Below are positions 21,248-58,535 of a stretch of DNA of 64,000 nucleotides, in pieces; the first letter of the stretch is position 1, and every line of letters begins with the position of its first letter. This stretch comes from Saccharothrix sp. HUAS TT1 (GTDB lineage: Bacteria > Actinomycetota > Actinomycetes > Mycobacteriales > Pseudonocardiaceae). The DNA lies in the NCBI RefSeq assembly GCF_040744945.1, contig NZ_CP160453.1, positions 2,418,001 through 2,482,000 of the forward strand, read 5' to 3'. Made by a program: the position numbers and the translations under genes. The notes under the pieces were generated by a model. That model was not told where the DNA came from and made no database searches. It saw only the letters and a list, made by a program, of their open reading frames with translations.

Positions 21248-21607
21248 GTGGACGATCAGTTGTCGCGGGTCTTCTCGGCCCTGGCCGACCCGATCCGGCG
21301 CGACATGGTGGCGCGGTTGGCGGTGGGCGACGCGACGGTGAACGAGCTGGCCGGGCCGTACTCCGTGACCGTGCAGGCCGTGTCGAAGCACCTCAAGGTC
21401 CTTGAGGACGCCGGGCTCGTCAGCCGCAGCAAGCAGGCGCAGCGGCGGCCCGTCCACCTGGAGGCGGAGGTGTTCGACCTGATGACGAAGTGGATCGAGC
21501 GCTACCGGCGGGAAGCGGAGCAGCGCTACCAGCGGCTGGACACCGTGCTCGCCGAGCTGGCGACCGAGGGGTCCGACCCGGACCGAGTTGGAGGAGAAGC
21601 ATCATGA
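21248..21607 (+). CDS. ArsR-family transcriptional repressor
   Basis: About 119 residues. The winged helix-turn-helix covers residues 5-85 (SRVFSALADPIRRDMVARL, VTVQAVSKHLKVLEDAGLV). There are no CxC metal-binding cysteines, so it belongs to the non-metal ArsR group that travels with SRPBCC genes. The GTG at 21248 has AAGGAG 6 bases upstream; an ATG at 21242 abuts that Shine-Dalgarno and is less likely. Its ATGA junction with the next gene shows coupling. It probably represses its own operon through the two palindromes upstream. Confidence 0.92.
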   Translation: MDDQLSRVFSALADPIRRDMVARLAVGDATVNELAGPYSVTVQAVSKHLKVLEDAGLVSRSKQAQRRPVHLEAEVFDLMTKWIERYRREAEQRYQRLDTVLAELATEGSDPDRVGGEAS

Positions 21608-22092
21608 GCACGACGACCGCGCACCCCGAGACCAGCATCAGCGCCGACCCGGAGGCGCCGACCATCCACATCACGCGCGAGTTCGACGCGCCGGTGGACG
21701 CGGTGTTCCGAGCGCACGTCGACCCGGAGCTGGTGGTGCGGTGGCTGGGGCCGCGCTCGGTGACCATGCGGGTGGACCGGTGGGACGCGACGACCGGCGG
21801 GGCGTACCGGTACGCGCACACCCGGGGTGAGGAGGAGTACCGGTTCTACGGCTCGTTCCACGAGGTGCGGCCCGGTGAGCGGATCGTGCAGACGTTCACG
21901 TTCGAGGGATTTCCGGACGGGGTGTCGCTGGAGACGGTGACGTTCGAGGACCTGGGCGGTGGGCGGAGCCGGTTGCACGCGGTCAGCGTGTTCGAGACGA
22001 CGGAGGTGCGGGACATGGCCATGGCCAGCGGCATGGAGACCGGCGTGGTCGAGGGCTACGAACAGCTGGACGACCTCCTCACCACCCCCTGA
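21604..22092 (+). CDS. SRPBCC (AHSA1-like) ligand-binding protein
   Basis: 162 residues with the activator-of-Hsp90-like SRPBCC fold: ITREFDAPVDAVFRAHVDPELV RW start, RWDATTGGAYRY, and a C-terminal GYEQLDDLL helix. Such proteins bind a hydrophobic ligand in a central groove and are often encoded right after an ArsR regulator, as here (4-base overlap). Which ligand or reaction is involved is unknown. A 22-bp repeat array begins 6 bases after its stop. Confidence 0.88.
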   Translation: MSTTTAHPETSISADPEAPTIHITREFDAPVDAVFRAHVDPELVVRWLGPRSVTMRVDRWDATTGGAYRYAHTRGEEEYRFYGSFHEVRPGERIVQTFTFEGFPDGVSLETVTFEDLGGGRSRLHAVSVFETTEVRDMAMASGMETGVVEGYEQLDDLLTTP

Positions 22093-22098
22093 CCGCCC

Positions 22099-22228
22099 GC
22101 GAGTCGAACACTCCCGTCCCGCGTGTCCTACGTTCCGACCGCGCGTGTCCTACGTTCGGGACGCGAGAGTCCTACGTTCAGGGTGCGAGAGTCCTACGTT
22201 CCCGTACCGCGAGTTCAACGTTCAGGGC
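22099..22228 (+). repeat. Six-unit imperfect tandem array, 22-bp period, directly after a stop codon
   Basis: Units start at 22099, 22121, 22143, 22163, 22185 and 22209, that is every 20-24 bases. Consensus GCGAGAGTCCTACGTTC plus about 5 variable bases; units 2 and 3 lack two bases (GCGTGTCCTACGTTC) and units 1 and 6 are more divergent. The array begins 6 bases after the TGA at 22090-22092 and reads in the direction of that gene. The same family occurs at 57633-57777. Confidence 0.85.
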
Positions 22229-22241
22229 GGTGGTTGGGTCC

Positions 22242-22375
22242 GGTTCGATTTGACATGGGGCCCTTACGGGCACCCTATGCAGGCCAAAGCCGGCAGGCCC
22301 GGCGGGGAAGAGCGTCCCGCCAGGCCTGCCGGCTTCGTCCAGCCTATGGCACCCGAACCCATGTCAAATCGAACC
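22242..22375. repeat. 134-bp palindromic element with perfect 18-bp terminal inverted repeats
   Basis: Outer arms are GGTTCGATTTGACATGGG (22242-22259) and its exact complement (22358-22375). Inside lies a second perfect pair, AAGCCGGCAGGCC (22287-22299) with 22323-22335, which encloses GGCGGG/CCCGCC (22301-22306 with 22316-22321) around a 9-base loop. The segments between are also related but degenerate. The whole would fold into one long hairpin on either strand. No coding capacity. It could be a MITE-like or REP-like mobile element or a bidirectional terminator; no target duplication is seen. Confidence 0.8.
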
Positions 22376-22410: not shown

Positions 22411-22462
22411 TGTGGTTAGTGGGTGGGAGTTGTTGGTGGTGGGGTTGTGGTTAGTGGGTGGG
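22411..22462. repeat. Short direct repeat at the end of the double ABC exporter gene
   Basis: TGTGGTTAGTGGGTGGG occurs at 22411-22427 and again at 22446-22462. The second copy contains the TAA stop and last codons of the exporter gene, so the first copy is a duplicate of the gene end placed 18 bases downstream, perhaps by slippage. Confidence 0.6.
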
Positions 22463-25400
22463 GGTTAGTTCGGTTGGTTCGTGGTTGGCGCCGTGGGACC
22501 AGAGGGTGGCGTAGGGGCCGTTGGCCTGGAGCAGGTCGTCGTGGGTGCCCTGTTCGACGATTCGGCCTTCGGCGAGGACGACGATCCGGTCGGCGCGGGC
22601 GGCGGTGGCTAGGCGGTGGGCGACGACGAAGGTGGTTCGGGAGCCGGACAGGTGGTCGTTGGCGGCGAGGACGGTGGCTTCGGTGGACGGGTCCAGGGCG
22701 GCAGTGGCTTCGTCCAGCAGGAGGATCGTCGGTTGGACCAGTTCGGCGCGGGCCAGGGCGACCAGTTGGCGTTGGCCGGCGGAGAGGGCTTGGCCGCGTT
22801 CGCCCACTTGTTGGTGGAAGGCGTTGGGCAGGGAGGCGATGACGGGGAGGGCGCCCACCGCGCGGACCGCTGCCTCGATGTCGGCACGGGTGGCGTCGGG
22901 GTTGCCGTAGGCGACGTTCTCGGCGATGTCGCCGCCGAAGAGGTGGGCCTCCTGGGGGACGATGCCCAGGCGTTGGCGCAGGGCGGGCAGGTCGTAGTCG
23001 CGCAGGTCCACGCCGTCGACCAGGACCTGGCCCTCGGTGGCGTCGTAGAACCTGGCGACGAGCTTGACCAGGGTGGACTTGCCGGCGCCGGTGGCGCCGA
23101 CCAGGGCGACGGTTTCGCCCGGCCGCACGTGCAGGGAGATGTCCCGCACAGCGGGGGTGGTGGTGTCCTGGTAGGCGAACGTGACGTTGCGCAGCTCGAC
23201 CTCGCCGCGCAGCGCGGTGACGGGGACCGGGTGCTCGGCGGGCGGCACGGTGGTCGGGGTGCGGAGCAGGTCGCCGATCCGGCTCAGGCCGACCCTGGCC
23301 TGCTGGTAGCCGTCGAAGACGCCGGACAGCTGGTACAGCGGCGAGAAGAACAGGCCCAGGTACAGCACGAACGCCAGCAGGACGCCGGGGGACAGGGTGC
23401 CGTCGGCCACCCGGTAGGCGCCGACCACGAGGATCGCGGCCTGGGCGACGCCGGACAGGAGCGAGAGGAACGGGAAGTAGGTGGCGATGTAGCGCTGGGC
23501 CCGGATGCGGGACTTGCGGTAGGCGTCGCTGCGCTCGGCGAAGGCCTCGGCGGAGCGGGCTTCCCGGGTGTACGCCTGGGAGACGCGCAGGCCCGAGACG
23601 TTCTCCTGGAGGTCGGCGTTGACGGCGCTGACGCGTTCGCGGGCCTCGGCGTAGGCGGCGGAGGAGAGGCGTTGGAAGATGGCCGTGGCGATCAGCAGGA
23701 TCGGCAGCACGGCGAGCGCGACCAGGGCCAGGCCGGGGTCGGTGAGGACCAGGGCGACGGCGATGCCGAACACGGTCAGCACGCTGATGACGAAGGTGGT
23801 CAGGCCCGTCTGCAGGAAGCTGGACAGGGCGTCGACGTCGGTGGTCATCCGGGTCATGATCCGGCCGGCCATCTCGCGCTCGTAGTAGTCCAGCCCCAGT
23901 CTTTGCAGGTGGGCGTAGCTGCGCACGCGCAACAGGTAGAGCAGGCGCTCGCCGACCCGGGACGTGACCACGGCGCCGATCGCGGCGGCTGCCCAACCCG
24001 CGACGACCAGGGCGAAGCTGATGGCCACGGCCGTCCAGAGCCAGCCCGCCCGGCCGCCGACGACGCCCTGGTCGACGCCCAGGCGGACCAGGTTGGGCGA
24101 GGCGACGGCCAGGGCCGTGTCGACCAGCAGCACGCCGGCGACGGCGAGCATCGCCCAGCGGACCGGGCGGAGCAGGGTGCGCAGGCGGAAGCCGGGGTCG
24201 GGGGCGCGGGGATCCTCGCCCGCCAGGGTCGGCTCGTCCTCGGCCGGCGGGAGGGCGTGCACGCGGGCCATCAGGTCCGGGGTCGGCGGGGTGCCGCCGA
24301 GCAGCGCGGACGTGCCGCCGCCACCTCGGGAGAGCTTGCCGGTGGGGGTCCTGTTCGCGGCCCGCACGGCCAGTTCGTCGTCGTCGGAGTCGGGCCACAG
24401 GGCCGGGGTGGTGCCGTCGGGGCCCGGTTCCAGGTGGGCGTCGGCCCTCGGGTCGACCTGCTCGATCGCCTCGCCGGGCCCGGCGAGCAGGTCGCGGTAG
24501 AGGCGGCAGCGGCGGTGCAGTTCGGCGTGGGTGCCGATGTCGACCACGCGGCCCGCGTCCAGGACGGCGATGCGGTCGGCCAGGGACAGCGACGACCGCC
24601 GGTGCGCGATCAGGACGGTGGTGCGCTCGGCGGTGACGGCGGCCAGCGTGCGGTGGATGGCGGCCTCGGTGGCGTTGTCCACGGCTGACGTGGCGTCGTC
24701 CAGGACGAGGACGCGGGGGTCGGAGAGGAGCGCCCTGGCCAGCGCCACCCGTTGGCGCTGGCCGCCGGAGAGGGTGAGGCCGCGTTCGCCGACGACGGTG
24801 TCGTAGCCCTTCGGCAGGGCCTCGATGAACTCGTGCGCCTCGGCCGCCCGCGCCGCCGCGCGCACCTGCTCGTCGGACGCGTCCGGCAGGCCGTAGGCGA
24901 TGTTGGCCCGCACGGTGTCGGAGAACAGGAAAGCCTCCTCGAACACCGTGCCCACGGTCCGCCGCAGCGACGACAGCCGCAGCTCCCGCACGTCGACCCC
25001 GCCGACCGACACCGAGCCCTCGTGCACGTCGTAGAACCGGGGCAGCAGCAGCGACACCGTCGACTTGCCCGAACCCGCCGTGCCGACGACCGCCAGCGTC
25101 TCGCCCGGCTCGACCCGCAGCGACACCCCGGACAGCACCGGCTCGCTGCGCGCGTACCCGAACACCACGTCCCGCAGCTCGACCGCCACCGGACCGGCCG
25201 GGACGTCGCGGTCGCCGTCCACCACGTCCGGCTGGGAGTCGACCAGCTCGTACACCCGCTCGACGCCCGCGCGGGCCAGCTGGGCGGTCACCATCAGGCT
25301 CGCCAGCAGCCTGGACGGGCCGACCAGGGTCGCCACGTAGGTCGCGAACGCCAGGAACGTGCCCAGCGTGACCTCGCCGCGCATCGCCATCCACCCGCCG

Positions 25401-26185
25401 AGGGCGAGCACCGCGACCTGCCCCAGGTAGGGCAGCGCGTTCAACGTGGCCGACGGGCGCGCGGTCAGCCGGGCCGCGCGCATCCGCTCGGCGAACAGCA
25501 GCCTGGCCCGCGACTCCAGCCGGGCGACCTCGCGCGCCTCCTGCCCGAAGCCCTTCACCACCCGCACGCCGGTGACGGTCTCCTCGACGTGCTGCGCCAC
25601 GTCCGCCGCGCGCTGCTGCGCCGACCAGGTGGCCGGGAACAGCGTCAGCCTGCTGCGCGCCGCGACCACCCCGACGGCGGGCACGATCACCAGCGCGATC
25701 ACGGTCAGCAGCGGTGACAGCCAGAACATCGCCACCAGGGCCGCCAGCGCGAACACCACCGTGCCGAAGGCCAGCGGCGTCATCGACAGCAGGCTGTTGA
25801 CCAGTTGCAGGTCGGTGATCGAGCGGGACACGACCTGGCCGGTGCGCAGCGCGTCCTGCTTGGGCCCGTCCAGCCGCTGCACGGCGCCGAACACGGCTTG
25901 GCGCAGGTCGTGCTGCACGTCGACGGCCAGCCGGCCGCCCAGGTAGCGGCGCACGAACGCGGTGCCGAAGGTCAGCAGCTCCAGGGCGACCAGGACGACG
26001 GCCAGCCACGCGAGCCGGTCCGTGCGGCCGGCCACGGCGTCGTCCACCGCGACCTTGATCAGCAGGGGCCCGACGGCCTGCAGGCCGACGCCGACGACGG
26101 CGGCCAGCACCGACCACACCACCAGGGAGCGGTGCTGCCAGCACGCGGAGGCGAGCCTGCGGATCCAGCCGTCGGAACGAGTCAC
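22451..26185 (-). CDS. Double ABC exporter: two membrane-ATPase halves in one polypeptide
   Basis: 1244 residues: membrane domain 1 (about 15-310), ATPase 1 (about 335-575), a charged linker (about 580-690), membrane domain 2 (about 695-985), ATPase 2 (about 1000-1240). ATPase 1 has Walker A GTAGSGKST, signature LSGGQRQR and Walker B VLVLDDATSAVD, with Asp where the catalytic Glu should be. ATPase 2 has GATGAGKST, a variant signature LSAGQRQL and an intact ILLLDEATAALD. The two ATP sites are therefore unequal, as in heterodimeric exporters such as TM287/288. It starts at a GTG. Probable lipid or drug exporter of the cytoplasmic membrane. Confidence 0.93.
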   Translation of the reverse strand: MTRSDGWIRRLASACWQHRSLVVWSVLAAVVGVGLQAVGPLLIKVAVDDAVAGRTDRLAWLAVVLVALELLTFGTAFVRRYLGGRLAVDVQHDLRQAVFGAVQRLDGPKQDALRTGQVVSRSITDLQLVNSLLSMTPLAFGTVVFALAALVAMFWLSPLLTVIALVIVPAVGVVAARSRLTLFPATWSAQQRAADVAQHVEETVTGVRVVKGFGQEAREVARLESRARLLFAERMRAARLTARPSATLNALPYLGQVAVLALGGWMAMRGEVTLGTFLAFATYVATLVGPSRLLASLMVTAQLARAGVERVYELVDSQPDVVDGDRDVPAGPVAVELRDVVFGYARSEPVLSGVSLRVEPGETLAVVGTAGSGKSTVSLLLPRFYDVHEGSVSVGGVDVRELRLSSLRRTVGTVFEEAFLFSDTVRANIAYGLPDASDEQVRAAARAAEAHEFIEALPKGYDTVVGERGLTLSGGQRQRVALARALLSDPRVLVLDDATSAVDNATEAAIHRTLAAVTAERTTVLIAHRRSSLSLADRIAVLDAGRVVDIGTHAELHRRCRLYRDLLAGPGEAIEQVDPRADAHLEPGPDGTTPALWPDSDDDELAVRAANRTPTGKLSRGGGGTSALLGGTPPTPDLMARVHALPPAEDEPTLAGEDPRAPDPGFRLRTLLRPVRWAMLAVAGVLLVDTALAVASPNLVRLGVDQGVVGGRAGWLWTAVAISFALVVAGWAAAAIGAVVTSRVGERLLYLLRVRSYAHLQRLGLDYYEREMAGRIMTRMTTDVDALSSFLQTGLTTFVISVLTVFGIAVALVLTDPGLALVALAVLPILLIATAIFQRLSSAAYAEARERVSAVNADLQENVSGLRVSQAYTREARSAEAFAERSDAYRKSRIRAQRYIATYFPFLSLLSGVAQAAILVVGAYRVADGTLSPGVLLAFVLYLGLFFSPLYQLSGVFDGYQQARVGLSRIGDLLRTPTTVPPAEHPVPVTALRGEVELRNVTFAYQDTTTPAVRDISLHVRPGETVALVGATGAGKSTLVKLVARFYDATEGQVLVDGVDLRDYDLPALRQRLGIVPQEAHLFGGDIAENVAYGNPDATRADIEAAVRAVGALPVIASLPNAFHQQVGERGQALSAGQRQLVALARAELVQPTILLLDEATAALDPSTEATVLAANDHLSGSRTTFVVAHRLATAARADRIVVLAEGRIVEQGTHDDLLQANGPYATLWSHGANHEPTELTPTH

Positions 26186-30550: not shown

Positions 30551-30740
30551 GGAACCCGCGCGGGAGAGACCTCGGTGAACGTGCCGGGGCGCCGAAGGAG
30601 CAAGCACCCCCGCACACTCTCAGGCAGCGAGAACCGCTCGGGTGAGGCGACTCTGGAAAGCGCGCTCGACGCGCACCCACGGTGCAAGCCGCGACGCCGC
30701 GGTGAAGCTCTCAGGTCCCAGGACAGAGCAGGGGATCCGG
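30551..30740 (+). ncRNA. Tandem glycine riboswitch
   Basis: Both aptamers show the conserved core. Aptamer 1 has GGGAGAGACC, then GCCGAAGGAGCAAGC and CTCTCAGGCA. Aptamer 2, from about 30638, has GGGTGAGGCGACTCTGGA, then GGTGAAGCTCTCAGG and the closing AGGACAGAGC. The element ends about 25 bases before the gcvH GTG. In the known class glycine binding turns on glycine cleavage genes. Confidence 0.93.
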
Positions 30741-56463: not shown

Positions 56464-57627
56464 ATGTTGGACTTCCGTCTGGACGAGGAATACGAGGCGC
56501 TGCGCAAGACCGTCGAGGAGTTCGCGCGCGAGGAGGTCGCGCCGGTCATCGGCGAGTTCTACGAGCGCGAGGAGTTCCCGTACGGGATCGTCGCCAAGAT
56601 GGGGCGGATGGGCCTGTTCGGGCTGCCGTTCCCGGAGGAGCACGGCGGCATGGGCGGCGACTACTTCGCGCTGTGCCTGGCGCTGGAGGAGCTGGCGCGG
56701 GTCGACTCGTCGGTGGCGATCACGCTGGAGGCGGGCGTCTCGCTCGGCTCGATGCCGCTGTTCCGGTTCGGGTCCGACGAGCAGCGGGCCACCTGGCTGC
56801 CCCGGCTGTGCGCGGGTGAGGCGCTGGGCGCGTTCGGGCTCACCGAGCCGGGCGGCGGTTCGGACGCGGGCGCGCTGCGGACCACGGCCAAGGTCGACGG
56901 CGACTCGTGGGTGCTCAACGGCACCAAGGCGTTCATCACCAACTCCGGCACGGACATCACCGGGCTGGTGACGGTGGCGGCGGTGACCGGGCGGCGGGAG
57001 AACGGCAAGCCGGAGATCTCGGCGATCATCGTGCCGTCGGGCACGCCGGGGTTCACGGTGTCGCGCAAGTACTCCAAGGTGGGCTGGAACGCGTCGGACA
57101 CGCGCGAGCTGTCGTTCCAGGACTGCCGCGTGCCGCTGGAGAACCTGGTCGGCGAGCGCGGGCGCGGTTACGCGCAGTTCCTGCAGACGTTGGACGAGGG
57201 CCGGGTGGCGATCGCGGCCATCGGCGTCGGGCTGGCGCAGGGGTGCGTGGACGAGTGCCTGCGGTACGTCCGGGAGCGGGAGGCGTTCGGGCACCGGATC
57301 GGGGAGTACCAGGCGATCCAGTTCAAGATCGCCGAGATGGAGGCGCGCACGCACACCTCGCGGCTGGCGTACTACCAGGCGGCGGCGAAGATGCTGCGCG
57401 GCGAGCCGTTCAAGCGCGAGGCGGCGATCGCCAAGCTCGTCTCGTCCGAAGCCGCGATGGACAACGCCCGCGAGGCCACCCAGATCTTCGGCGGCTACGG
57501 CTTCATGAACGAGTACCCCGTCGGCCGCTTCTACCGCGACGCCAAGATCCTGGAGATCGGCGAGGGCACCAGCGAGGTCCAGAAGATGCTGATCGCCCGC
57601 GACCTGGGCCTCCCCCACCCCTCCTGA
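56464..57627 (+). CDS. Acyl-CoA dehydrogenase, probably isovaleryl- or short-branched-chain type
   Basis: 387 residues. Family marks: LGAFGLTEPGGGSDAGALRT, WVLNGTKAFITNSG, the helix FGHRIGEYQAIQFKIAEM, and the C-terminal FGGYGFMNEYPVGRFYRDAK with the FAD-binding IGEGTSEVQ. It starts 3 bases after accA1. With the carboxylase pair this is the gene set of leucine/isovalerate breakdown (FadE19-AccA1-AccD1 in mycobacteria). An inverted 22-bp repeat array begins 5 bases after its stop. Confidence 0.93.
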   Translation: MLDFRLDEEYEALRKTVEEFAREEVAPVIGEFYEREEFPYGIVAKMGRMGLFGLPFPEEHGGMGGDYFALCLALEELARVDSSVAITLEAGVSLGSMPLFRFGSDEQRATWLPRLCAGEALGAFGLTEPGGGSDAGALRTTAKVDGDSWVLNGTKAFITNSGTDITGLVTVAAVTGRRENGKPEISAIIVPSGTPGFTVSRKYSKVGWNASDTRELSFQDCRVPLENLVGERGRGYAQFLQTLDEGRVAIAAIGVGLAQGCVDECLRYVREREAFGHRIGEYQAIQFKIAEMEARTHTSRLAYYQAAAKMLRGEPFKREAAIAKLVSSEAAMDNAREATQIFGGYGFMNEYPVGRFYRDAKILEIGEGTSEVQKMLIARDLGLPHPS

Positions 57628-57632
57628 CCCCC

Positions 57633-57777
57633 CGCGAGAGTCCAACGTCCACGCCGCGAGAGTCCAACGTTCAGAGCACCTGAGTTCACCATTCGGCCGA
57701 CCGACCGGTATGCCTGAGCGTTGAACTCAGGACACGCGAACGTTGGACTCTCGGCCGCTGGGCGTTGGACTCTCGCG
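57633..57777. repeat. Mirrored 22-bp repeat array between convergent genes
   Basis: Three units read rightward (57633, 57655, a degenerate one near 57680; consensus GCGAGAGTCCAACGTTC), and three read leftward (about 57719-57733, 57735-57753, 57759-57776). Each half starts a few bases after the stop codon of its gene and reads in that gene's direction. Same family as 22099-22228. The mirrored halves could pair in RNA transcribed through the region. Confidence 0.85.
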
Positions 57778-57779
57778 GG

Positions 57780-58535
57780 TCAGGGGGTGCCGTGGCGGCC
57801 TTCGCCGGAGCGGTAGCGGCGGAGGCCCGGGTCGACCTCGGTCAGGGAGGTCAGGCCGTGGGCCAGTTCGTTGGCCAGGGCGTCCGGTTCGGGCAGGGCC
57901 TCCTGTTCGAGGAGGGACAGGCGGTCCTCGCGCAGGCACAGCTGCGGGAACGAGGCGAGCCGCAGGGCCAGGGCCTCGGCGGCGGAACGGGCGGTGCCCG
58001 CCGGCACGACGCGGTTCACCAGGCCGATCGCCAACGCCTCCGCCGCGTCGACCGGACGGCCCGTCAGCACGAGGTCCATCGCCCGCGACGCGCCGATCAA
58101 CCGGGGCAGCCGGACCGTGCCGCCGTCGATCAGCGGCACGCCCCACCGCCGCGAGAACACGCCGAAGACGGCGTCGGCGTCGGCCACCCGCAGGTCGCAC
58201 CACAGGGCCAGCTCCAACCCGCCCGCCACCGCGTGCCCCGACACGGCCGCGACCACCGGCTTGGACAGCCGCAGCCGGGTCGGCCCCATCGGCCCGGACG
58301 GCGACCGCGCGTCGTTGCCGCGCTCGGTCCCGATCGCCTTCAGGTCCGCCCCCGAGCAGAACGTCCCGCCCTCGCCGCACAGCACGGCCACCGCCGCCGT
58401 CGGGTCCTCGTCGAACTCCCGGAACACCTCGGTCAACGTGTGCGCGGTCGGCCCGTCCACCGCGTTCCGCACGCCTGGCCGGTTCAACGACACGGTGACC
58501 ACCGGCCCGGACCGGCTCACCAGCACGGAGGTCAC
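57780..58535 (-). CDS. Enoyl-CoA hydratase/isomerase family protein
   Basis: 251 residues of the crotonase fold. Oxyanion loop residues are in GGTFCSGADLKAIG and SGHAVAGGLELALWCDLRVA. In the second, the usual catalytic Glu position after the glycine loop carries other residues (FSRRWGVPLIDGGTVRL), with Asp in place of the second Glu as in several unassigned crotonases, so the exact reaction is open. It overlaps the upstream AidB-like gene by 4 bases. Confidence 0.9.
   Translation of the reverse strand: MTSVLVSRSGPVVTVSLNRPGVRNAVDGPTAHTLTEVFREFDEDPTAAVAVLCGEGGTFCSGADLKAIGTERGNDARSPSGPMGPTRLRLSKPVVAAVSGHAVAGGLELALWCDLRVADADAVFGVFSRRWGVPLIDGGTVRLPRLIGASRAMDLVLTGRPVDAAEALAIGLVNRVVPAGTARSAAEALALRLASFPQLCLREDRLSLLEQEALPEPDALANELAHGLTSLTEVDPGLRRYRSGEGRHGTP

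What the first reader, a model, noticed from the sequence alone, without database searches (positions are those of the whole stretch)
22093..22228. Gene-end-associated 22-bp repeat family, array 1
Six imperfect units (consensus GCGAGAGTCCTACGTTC) follow one stop codon after only 6 bases and read with the gene. Period 20-24 bp, about two helical turns. The same family recurs 35 kb away, again right behind stop codons. I know of no named element with these features. A role in termination, mRNA 3'-end protection or protein/RNA binding is possible.
Basis: partly seen in the sequence, partly recalled or inferred. Interest (0 to 1): 0.75.

Follow-up and report, generated by a model that had tools for sequence, protein, structure and literature searches.

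The report
Phased 22-bp arrays at gene ends
Many bacteria of one soil family carry short blocks of 22-bp repeats right behind the ends of genes; the spacing follows the turns of the DNA helix, which suggests that an unidentified protein coats these spots and probably helps to stop transcription there.

Summary
The array is real: six units, exactly 22 bp apart, starting 6 bp behind the TGA at window 22090-22092. The host, close to Saccharothrix, has 124 one-mismatch unit matches, control 0. A generic two-unit form (GWGT-N4-CGTTC, 22-bp step) occurs in 70 of 297 genomes of the host's family, host included, patchily, up to 484 hits per genome; a class-wide sample gave only single hits in 8 other genomes. 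Of 204 arrays examined none lies inside a gene; of 202 with two called neighbours none lies between divergent genes, 116 lie between convergent genes and 166 lie within 30 bp of a stop codon. In Saccharothrix C-type units are closed by one T-type cap. The gap between opposing arms varies in steps of about 10.8 bp, one helical turn. Array 1 has no excess RNA structure. Orientation follows the gene in only two thirds. Most likely an unknown DNA-binding protein assembles here as a gene-end roadblock; the protein and termination are inferred, not shown. Five literature searches found no such family.

The parts
21604..22092 (+). upstream gene (AHSA1/SRPBCC-type protein, 162 aa), TGA at 22090-22092
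   Evidence: Pfam PF08327, E 4.6e-21; ORF and stop
22099..22223 (+). direct array 1: six units with 13-bp cores at 22101, 22123, 22145, 22167, 22189 and 22211, exact 22-bp steps; cores 1-5 are C-type (GWGTC), core 6 is the T-type cap (GAGTTCAACGTTC)
   Evidence: cap rule
22242..22375 (.). separate dispersed element of MITE type, 134 bp, ends GGTTCGATTTGACATGGG / CCCATGTCAAATCGAACC with an inner GC-rich inverted repeat; begins 18 bp behind array 1
22451..26122 (-). convergent neighbour, ABC transporter gene
   Evidence: Pfam ABC_membrane, ABC_tran
56464..57627 (+). gene before array 2 (acyl-CoA dehydrogenase), TGA at 57625-57627
57634..57694 (+). array 2, + arm: cores at 57638, 57660 and 57682 (the last is the T-type cap)
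57695..57715 (.). 21-bp central gap between the arms (20 and 21 are the commonest gap lengths)
57780..58535 (-). convergent gene behind array 2 (enoyl-CoA hydratase family), stop 3 bp from the array

Best explanation
Each 22-bp unit (GWGT-N4-CGTTC plus a 9-bp filler) is a binding site for a DNA-binding protein not yet identified. Protomers assemble head to tail on one face of the helix (22 bp is about two turns); in Saccharothrix-type genomes a run of C-type units is closed by one T-type cap unit. Where two arms oppose each other they meet across a gap kept in helical register, so the two halves probably contact each other. The nucleoprotein block sits directly behind stop codons, mostly between convergent genes, and acts as a roadblock where transcription of one or both genes ends, so that it can stand in for an ordinary hairpin terminator. 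Shown: positions, spacing, cap rule, helical quantisation, conservation of sites, absence from coding and divergent regions in the samples. Inferred: the protein, its oligomerisation, and the termination effect.
For: Lattice: 360 of 363 consecutive strict-unit distances up to 24 bp in the 120 named Saccharothrix loci are 22. Cap rule: host, 33 chains: C at core position 5 in first units 100% and middle units 98%, T in last units 97%; named loci, 187 chains: 100%, 100%, 96%. Gaps between opposing arms outside the class 19-22: n=33, best period about 10.8 bp, R=0.68, 0 of 5000 random sets reach it, R at 22 only 0.34. One entry per genome and gap length: n=27, R=0.61, 1 of 5000 (9 of 3000 if any period 6-25 is allowed); further without gaps that hold a unit-like word: n=19, R=0.73, 1 of 5000 (0 of 3000). 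OUT pairs: gap 6 in 32 of 39. Context: 0 of 204 arrays inside genes; of 202, 116 convergent, 86 co-directional, 0 divergent; 141 within 12 bp and 166 within 30 bp of a stop. Sites kept between G000 and G002: array at both orthologous ends 14, at one 9, at neither 160 (Fisher p 1e-13). Cores 0.91 identical between orthologous arms, spacers 0.70, fourfold sites 0.79; 10 arms. At the window's own site relatives carry a compact hairpin: G002 -25.6, G016 -23.0, G006 and G024 -37.1 kcal/mol, but not G008 (-6.0) or G021 (-9.6). Convergent gene ends in the host: compact hairpin at 7 of 24 with array, 76 of 122 without, p 0.003.
Against: No binding protein was found and no expression data were available. 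Some array sites also have an ordinary hairpin, seen by eye (G006/G024 site 1; G000 2845955 and 2831508). Over all orthologous ends where G000 has an array and the relative was scored as having none, a compact hairpin was present in 12 of 31 (at least 7 of the 31 visibly carry an array that the motif missed) against 188 of 440 for ends without arrays, so replacement of terminators is not above the general rate. About one third of direct arrays are antisense. The cap rule fails in G018, G291, G054 and G206 and holds in only half of the chains of G021; in G302 33 of 65 unit distances of 21-22 are 21, not 22. Cores of non-orthologous arrays are already 0.86 identical, so their conservation may partly be homogenisation. 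Many sites are orthologous between species, the two ends of one convergent gap are counted separately, and 6 of the 8 gap-10 pairs come from one genome (G291), so the statistics are not of independent events.
Confidence: 0.45

Rival explanations
1. A neutral or selfish repeat family that can only survive behind stop codons. It spreads as composites with MITE-like elements, grows and shrinks by 22-bp steps, and does nothing for the cell.
For: Patchy across the family. In G000 array plus MITE recurs as one block at 79-91% identity. In G302 arrays sit in a larger dispersed element far from stops, 9 of 11 more than 150 bp away. Copy number changes from 4 to 6 units between two genomes mostly 97-98% identical. 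Cores of non-orthologous arrays are 0.86 alike, as homogenisation would give.
Against: Sites are kept over long times (14 shared against 9 one-sided ends); cores change less than spacers and fourfold sites (10 arms); the cap rule and helical quantisation are not expected of a neutral repeat; no clean insertion or target duplication was seen by eye at the ends with an array in one species only; Y1 and Mu-type transposase families do not go with the arrays.
Confidence: 0.25
2. A chromosome-structuring site: a protein that binds the arrays anchors or insulates DNA, or takes up the positive supercoiling that collects between convergent genes, without ending transcription itself.
For: Excess of convergent sites (15 of 25 against 52 of 391 gaps of 60 bp or more in G000); helical phasing; the 50 listed host sites become rarer with distance from dnaA: 22, 12 and 12 per 2 Mb and 4 in the last 2.5 Mb (one search listed 100 of 112 matches).
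Against: The tight adjacency to stop codons and the exchange with hairpins at some orthologous ends are not needed by this model; an ori-rich distribution may only follow the conserved core genome.
Confidence: 0.2
3. An RNA element of the 3' end: hairpins or RNA-binding sites that end or protect the transcript.
For: Inverted array 2 would form a very long hairpin (z -11.8); the cap unit is often self-complementary, for example CCTGAGTTCAACGCTCAGG (by eye); sense bias about 2 to 1.
Against: Direct array 1 has no excess structure (z +0.93; other direct arrays were not folded); spacers of opposing IN arms are not alike above background (0.57 within, 0.59 between sites); about one third of direct arrays are antisense; RNA pairing does not need gaps quantised at a helical turn.
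Confidence: 0.1

Closest known systems
REP/BIME elements with RAYT transposases (recalled)
   Same: Dispersed, extragenic, behind genes and between convergent genes, often in inverted pairs
   Different: Units here are direct 22-bp repeats; array 1 shows no excess fold; Y1 transposase absent from the host and in 4 of 15 array-rich and 1 of 10 other genomes of the genus
Iteron arrays of plasmid origins, e.g. 22-bp iterons of R6K (recalled)
   Same: Direct repeats about two turns apart, bound side by side by one protein
   Different: Dispersed at many gene ends of the chromosome, not at one origin beside a rep gene; paired in opposed arms, capped in Saccharothrix
BldC operators of Streptomyces (PMC5859096, passages seen)
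   Same: An actinobacterial protein that binds variable numbers of direct repeats head to tail and cooperatively
   Different: BldC repeats are AT-rich (AATTXXXX(C)), about one turn apart, described there in promoters; here other cores, two turns, gene ends
Protein roadblock terminators such as TTF-I at Sal boxes (recalled)
   Same: Repeated protein-binding sites behind a gene that could stop polymerase
   Different: Those serve rRNA genes of eukaryotes; here at many gene ends in bacteria, protein unknown, effect unmeasured
Intrinsic hairpin terminators
   Same: Same place; found at the orthologous gene end in several relatives
   Different: Array 1 shows no excess fold

Membership tests
REP/BIME (RAYT-borne) | palindromic unit folding into a hairpin | tested here: not met
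   direct array 1 z +0.93 (one direct array folded); only the cap unit is partly self-complementary, by eye
REP/BIME (RAYT-borne) | RAYT (Y1 transposase) in genomes that carry the repeat | tested here: not met
   PF01797 in 5 of 25 genus genomes: 4 of the 15 array-rich ones and 1 of the other 10 (G023); none in G000
REP/BIME (RAYT-borne) | extragenic, at 3' ends | tested here: met
Tn7/Mu-type transposon ends | matching transposase in genomes that carry the arrays | tested here: not met
   PF09299 in 5 of 25 genus genomes: 2 of the 15 array-rich ones and 3 of the other 10; none in G000
MITE | discrete insertion with terminal inverted repeats and target duplication | tested here: inconclusive
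   of five one-sided comparisons three are array against none (two at one S. deserti gene end) and show no clean insertion; two are copy-number differences; some arrays ride in composites
Iteron array | direct repeats a whole number of helical turns apart | tested here: met
   22 bp in nearly all samples, 21 or 22 in G302; gap period about 10.8 bp
Iteron array | at a replication origin, bound by a Rep protein | tested here: not met
   at least 50 dispersed chromosomal sites; the binding protein is not testable here
Intrinsic terminator | GC-rich hairpin followed by U run | tested here: not met
   compact hairpin at 7 of 24 convergent and 0 of 8 co-directional array-bearing gene ends of the host; U run not scored
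BldC operator | AATTXXXX(C) repeats about one turn apart | tested here: not met
   22-mer GaGTCCTACGTTCaggaCgCgn in the named loci against PMC5859096 passages
Known structured RNA families (Rfam) | match at gathering score | tested here: not met
   only a glycine riboswitch elsewhere in the window

The most novel reading that the evidence does not exclude
A genome-wide class of bacterial gene-end elements in Pseudonocardiaceae in which a lineage-specific DNA-binding protein polymerises on a helically phased, often capped array and ends transcription: a protein-array counterpart of the hairpin terminator, with recognition cores (N4) that have changed together with the protein from lineage to lineage.
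Probability: 0.35. Interest if true: 0.9.

Novelty: categorically new. Interest (0 to 1): 0.75.

Why it matters
Gene ends in bacteria are thought to be set by hairpins or by Rho (general knowledge). A dispersed array with a strict lattice, a cap and helical phasing, kept at the same gene ends over species boundaries while its sequence turns over, points to an unknown protein that works at many gene ends of a genome. That would be a new way to end or insulate transcription, and the grammar makes it directly testable. If it proves selfish, it is still an unusually ordered repeat family whose place is set by stop codons.

Tried and rejected
Intra-unit RNA hairpin (GTCC...GGAC seen in some spacers): dropped, because spacers vary freely and array 1 folds no better than its shuffles. 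Hairpin pairing as the reason why arms resemble each other: unit flavour (N4) agrees within IN sites (0.83 against 0.61 between sites; OUT 0.52 against 0.44), but spacers do not (IN 0.57 against 0.59; OUT 0.55 against 0.53). RAYT/REP and Tn7/Mu-type ends: transposase families do not go with the arrays. BldC: spacing and motif differ. A regulator with isolated promoter units in the host: 3 of 35 isolated high-scoring units in 860 kb are intergenic and none is convincing. First array detection with a loose PWM gave 383 clusters, many of them single weak hits inside genes; I then used stricter seeds (40 clusters, 25 with two or more units; reversed-sequence control 0). Rows dropped before counts: operon-internal pairs with gaps under 25 bp in both genomes or in either, arrays within 400 bp of a locus end and blocks under 3 units, identical array sequences counted once, repeated genome/gap combinations and, in a second set, gaps with a unit-like word chosen by eye. 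In one search one end scored as one-sided (2304645) visibly has an array in both genomes, and three have no gap between the genes in G000. One of the four G024 arrays had no counterpart among the three G006 arrays.

Full report
Observation. The six units at 22099-22223 are as described, but the spacing is exactly 22 bp, not 20-24. Their 13-bp cores are GAGTCGAACACTC, GTGTCCTACGTTC (twice), GAGTCCTACGTTC (twice) and GAGTTCAACGTTC. The second place, 57634-57776, is a pair of opposed three-unit arms with a 21-bp gap that fills the space between two convergent genes from stop to stop. In the window the 15-mer motif with up to 3 mismatches occurs 9 times against 1.17 expected.

Host and distribution. 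The host genome has 124 one-mismatch matches to GCGAGNGTCCTACGTTC, control 0. In a set of 99 genomes that includes the host, 14 match that string: the host, 12 of the other 24 genomes of its genus, and one genome of another genus with a single hit. Other species use other cores: a motif-free scan for self-similarity found lag 22 to be the commonest in samples of G000, G018 and G021, but not in samples of G016, G003 or G008. With the generic two-unit pattern GWGT-N4-CGTTC-N9-GWGT-N4-CGTTC and one mismatch, 70 of 297 family genomes match, host included, with up to 484 hits in one genome; the control reads 0 except 1 in two genomes. Many of the 70 have only a few hits; high counts are patchy within genera. 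In a class-wide sample of 394 genomes, which holds only two further genomes of the family (both 0), 9 match: the host, and 8 others with a single hit each; the control reads 1 in two genomes.

Place. In a contiguous 860 kb of the host there are 25 arrays: none inside a gene although 90% of the sequence is called coding, 15 between convergent genes, 10 co-directional, 0 divergent; among all gaps of 60 bp or more, 52 of 391 are convergent and 124 of 391 divergent. Genes were called by a script of my own, not by a standard program. Over all samples there are 204 arrays of three or more units (host 25, G002 18, four further genus genomes 21, named loci 114, G291/G054/G206 15, G302 11): 0 inside genes. 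Two had no called neighbour on one side. Of the other 202, 116 are convergent, 86 co-directional and 0 divergent; the nearest stop lies within 12 bp in 141 and within 30 bp in 166. G302 is the exception: 9 of its 11 lie over 150 bp from a stop, inside a larger dispersed element. In 21 of 112 named-locus arrays the last unit overlaps the stop codon by two bases (distance -2); in the two host cases of this kind the cap unit supplies them.

Grammar. Consecutive strict units are 22 bp apart in 360 of 363 cases up to 24 bp in the named loci; G302 has 32 distances of 22 and 33 of 21. In the host (33 chains) and the named loci (187 chains) units before the last carry C at core position 5 and the last unit carries T (97% and 96%); the same holds in G002 (24 chains), and in G302 (12 chains) except for 17% of first units. 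It does not hold in G054, G206 or G291, where one letter serves throughout or nearly so, nor in G018; in G021 half of the last units carry T. Opposed arms come as IN (caps facing each other) or OUT (caps outside). After removal of identical copies there are 93 IN and 39 OUT pairs. IN gaps are 20-22 in 60; the other 33 fall at -1/0, 10/11, 30-32, 42/43, 52-56, 74/76 and 108, with some off phase (3, 27, 48, 49). Their best period is 10.8 bp (R 0.68; 0 of 5000 random sets); a period of 22 fits much worse (0.34). Counting each genome and gap length once leaves 27 (R 0.61, 1 of 5000; 9 of 3000 if any period from 6 to 25 may win), and dropping gaps in which I saw a unit-like word leaves 19 (R 0.73, 1 of 5000; 0 of 3000). 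OUT gaps are 6 in 32 of 39; the others (-9, 4, 11, 11, 26, 27, 34) are too few to judge. Such phasing is expected of proteins on DNA, not of RNA.

Evolution. Between G000 and G002 (272 reciprocal-best orthologs, 88.5% amino-acid identity) arrays stand at both orthologous gene ends in 14 cases, at one in 9, at neither in 160 (the two ends of one convergent gap count twice). IN or OUT orientation is the same at 2304645 and 2490504 in both genomes. Cores are 0.91 identical between orthologous arms (0.86 between shuffled partners), spacers 0.70 (0.58), fourfold sites 0.79; only 10 arms. G006 and G024, mostly 97-98% identical, share three sites, with 4 against 6 units at one of them, and both arms differ together in N4 at another; a fourth G024 array has no counterpart found in G006. 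In the host, the 50 listed sites thin out from dnaA (1.49 Mb) towards the opposite side: 22, 12 and 12 per 2 Mb, then 4 in 2.5 Mb. The 12 matches left out of the listing lie beyond 7.62 Mb, that is within 2.4 Mb of dnaA, so they cannot fill the depleted part.

Function. At some gene ends an array stands where a relative has an ordinary hairpin: L097 (Saccharothrix sp. S26) against L145 (S. deserti), 2391633 (G002 -19.3 and G003 -18.5, but G016 -9.0 and G021 -10.4 kcal/mol), and the window's own array 1, where the hairpin is present in G002, G016, G006 and G024 but not in G008 or G021; the reverse case is 2514148, with a hairpin in the host and an array in G002 (by eye). In the host, compact hairpins occur at 7 of 24 convergent gene ends with an array against 76 of 122 others, p 0.003, and at 0 of 8 against 68 of 252 co-directional ones, p 0.12. 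Against a simple replacement, array-bearing genes have a hairpin in orthologs scored array-free no more often than other genes (12 of 31, of which at least 7 are missed arrays, against 188 of 440), and some arrays coexist with a hairpin. Array 1 has no RNA structure beyond its shuffles (z +0.93); array 2 folds strongly (z -11.8) as any inverted repeat would, but spacers of opposed arms do not match above background. I therefore favour a DNA-bound protein block that hinders or ends transcription. The protein is unknown.

Known families. REP/RAYT, Tn7/Mu ends, intrinsic terminators, BldC operators and Rfam families fail at least one tested defining feature. Iteron arrays share the phased direct repeats, but not the place. 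Literature searches gave no description (search listings only; PMC3469384: searched for words, no 'repeat', 'tandem' or 'palindrom' in its text; PMC5859096: passages). The library lacks most subscription papers, so absence from print is not proven. If the selfish reading is right, the novelty falls to a new family among extragenic repeats.

Noticed in passing
window 22242-22375: MITE-like inverted-repeat element directly behind array 1. Related copies occur in several genomes, among them one (G021) without the host's 22-bp core; in 860 kb of the host 3 of 6 copies stand beside a 22-bp array, in all three on the same side.
   Followed up: partly
window 30551-30646: Glycine riboswitch aptamer (RF00504, 56.1 bits).
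   Followed up: no
L341-L360 (G302): In this genome of another genus the array lies inside a longer dispersed element, and about half of the unit distances are 21 instead of 22.
   Followed up: partly
L364 (G291): A very long run of units, about twenty by eye, far above the usual 3-6, with some irregular spacing.
   Followed up: no
G000 C1, about 4.14-7.49 Mb: Only 4 of the 50 listed array sites lie in this terminus-side part of the host chromosome; dnaA lies at 1.49 Mb.
   Followed up: partly
G006/G024 orthologous site 3: The 4-bp core differs in both opposed arms together between two close genomes (CCGA against CCAA).
   Followed up: partly
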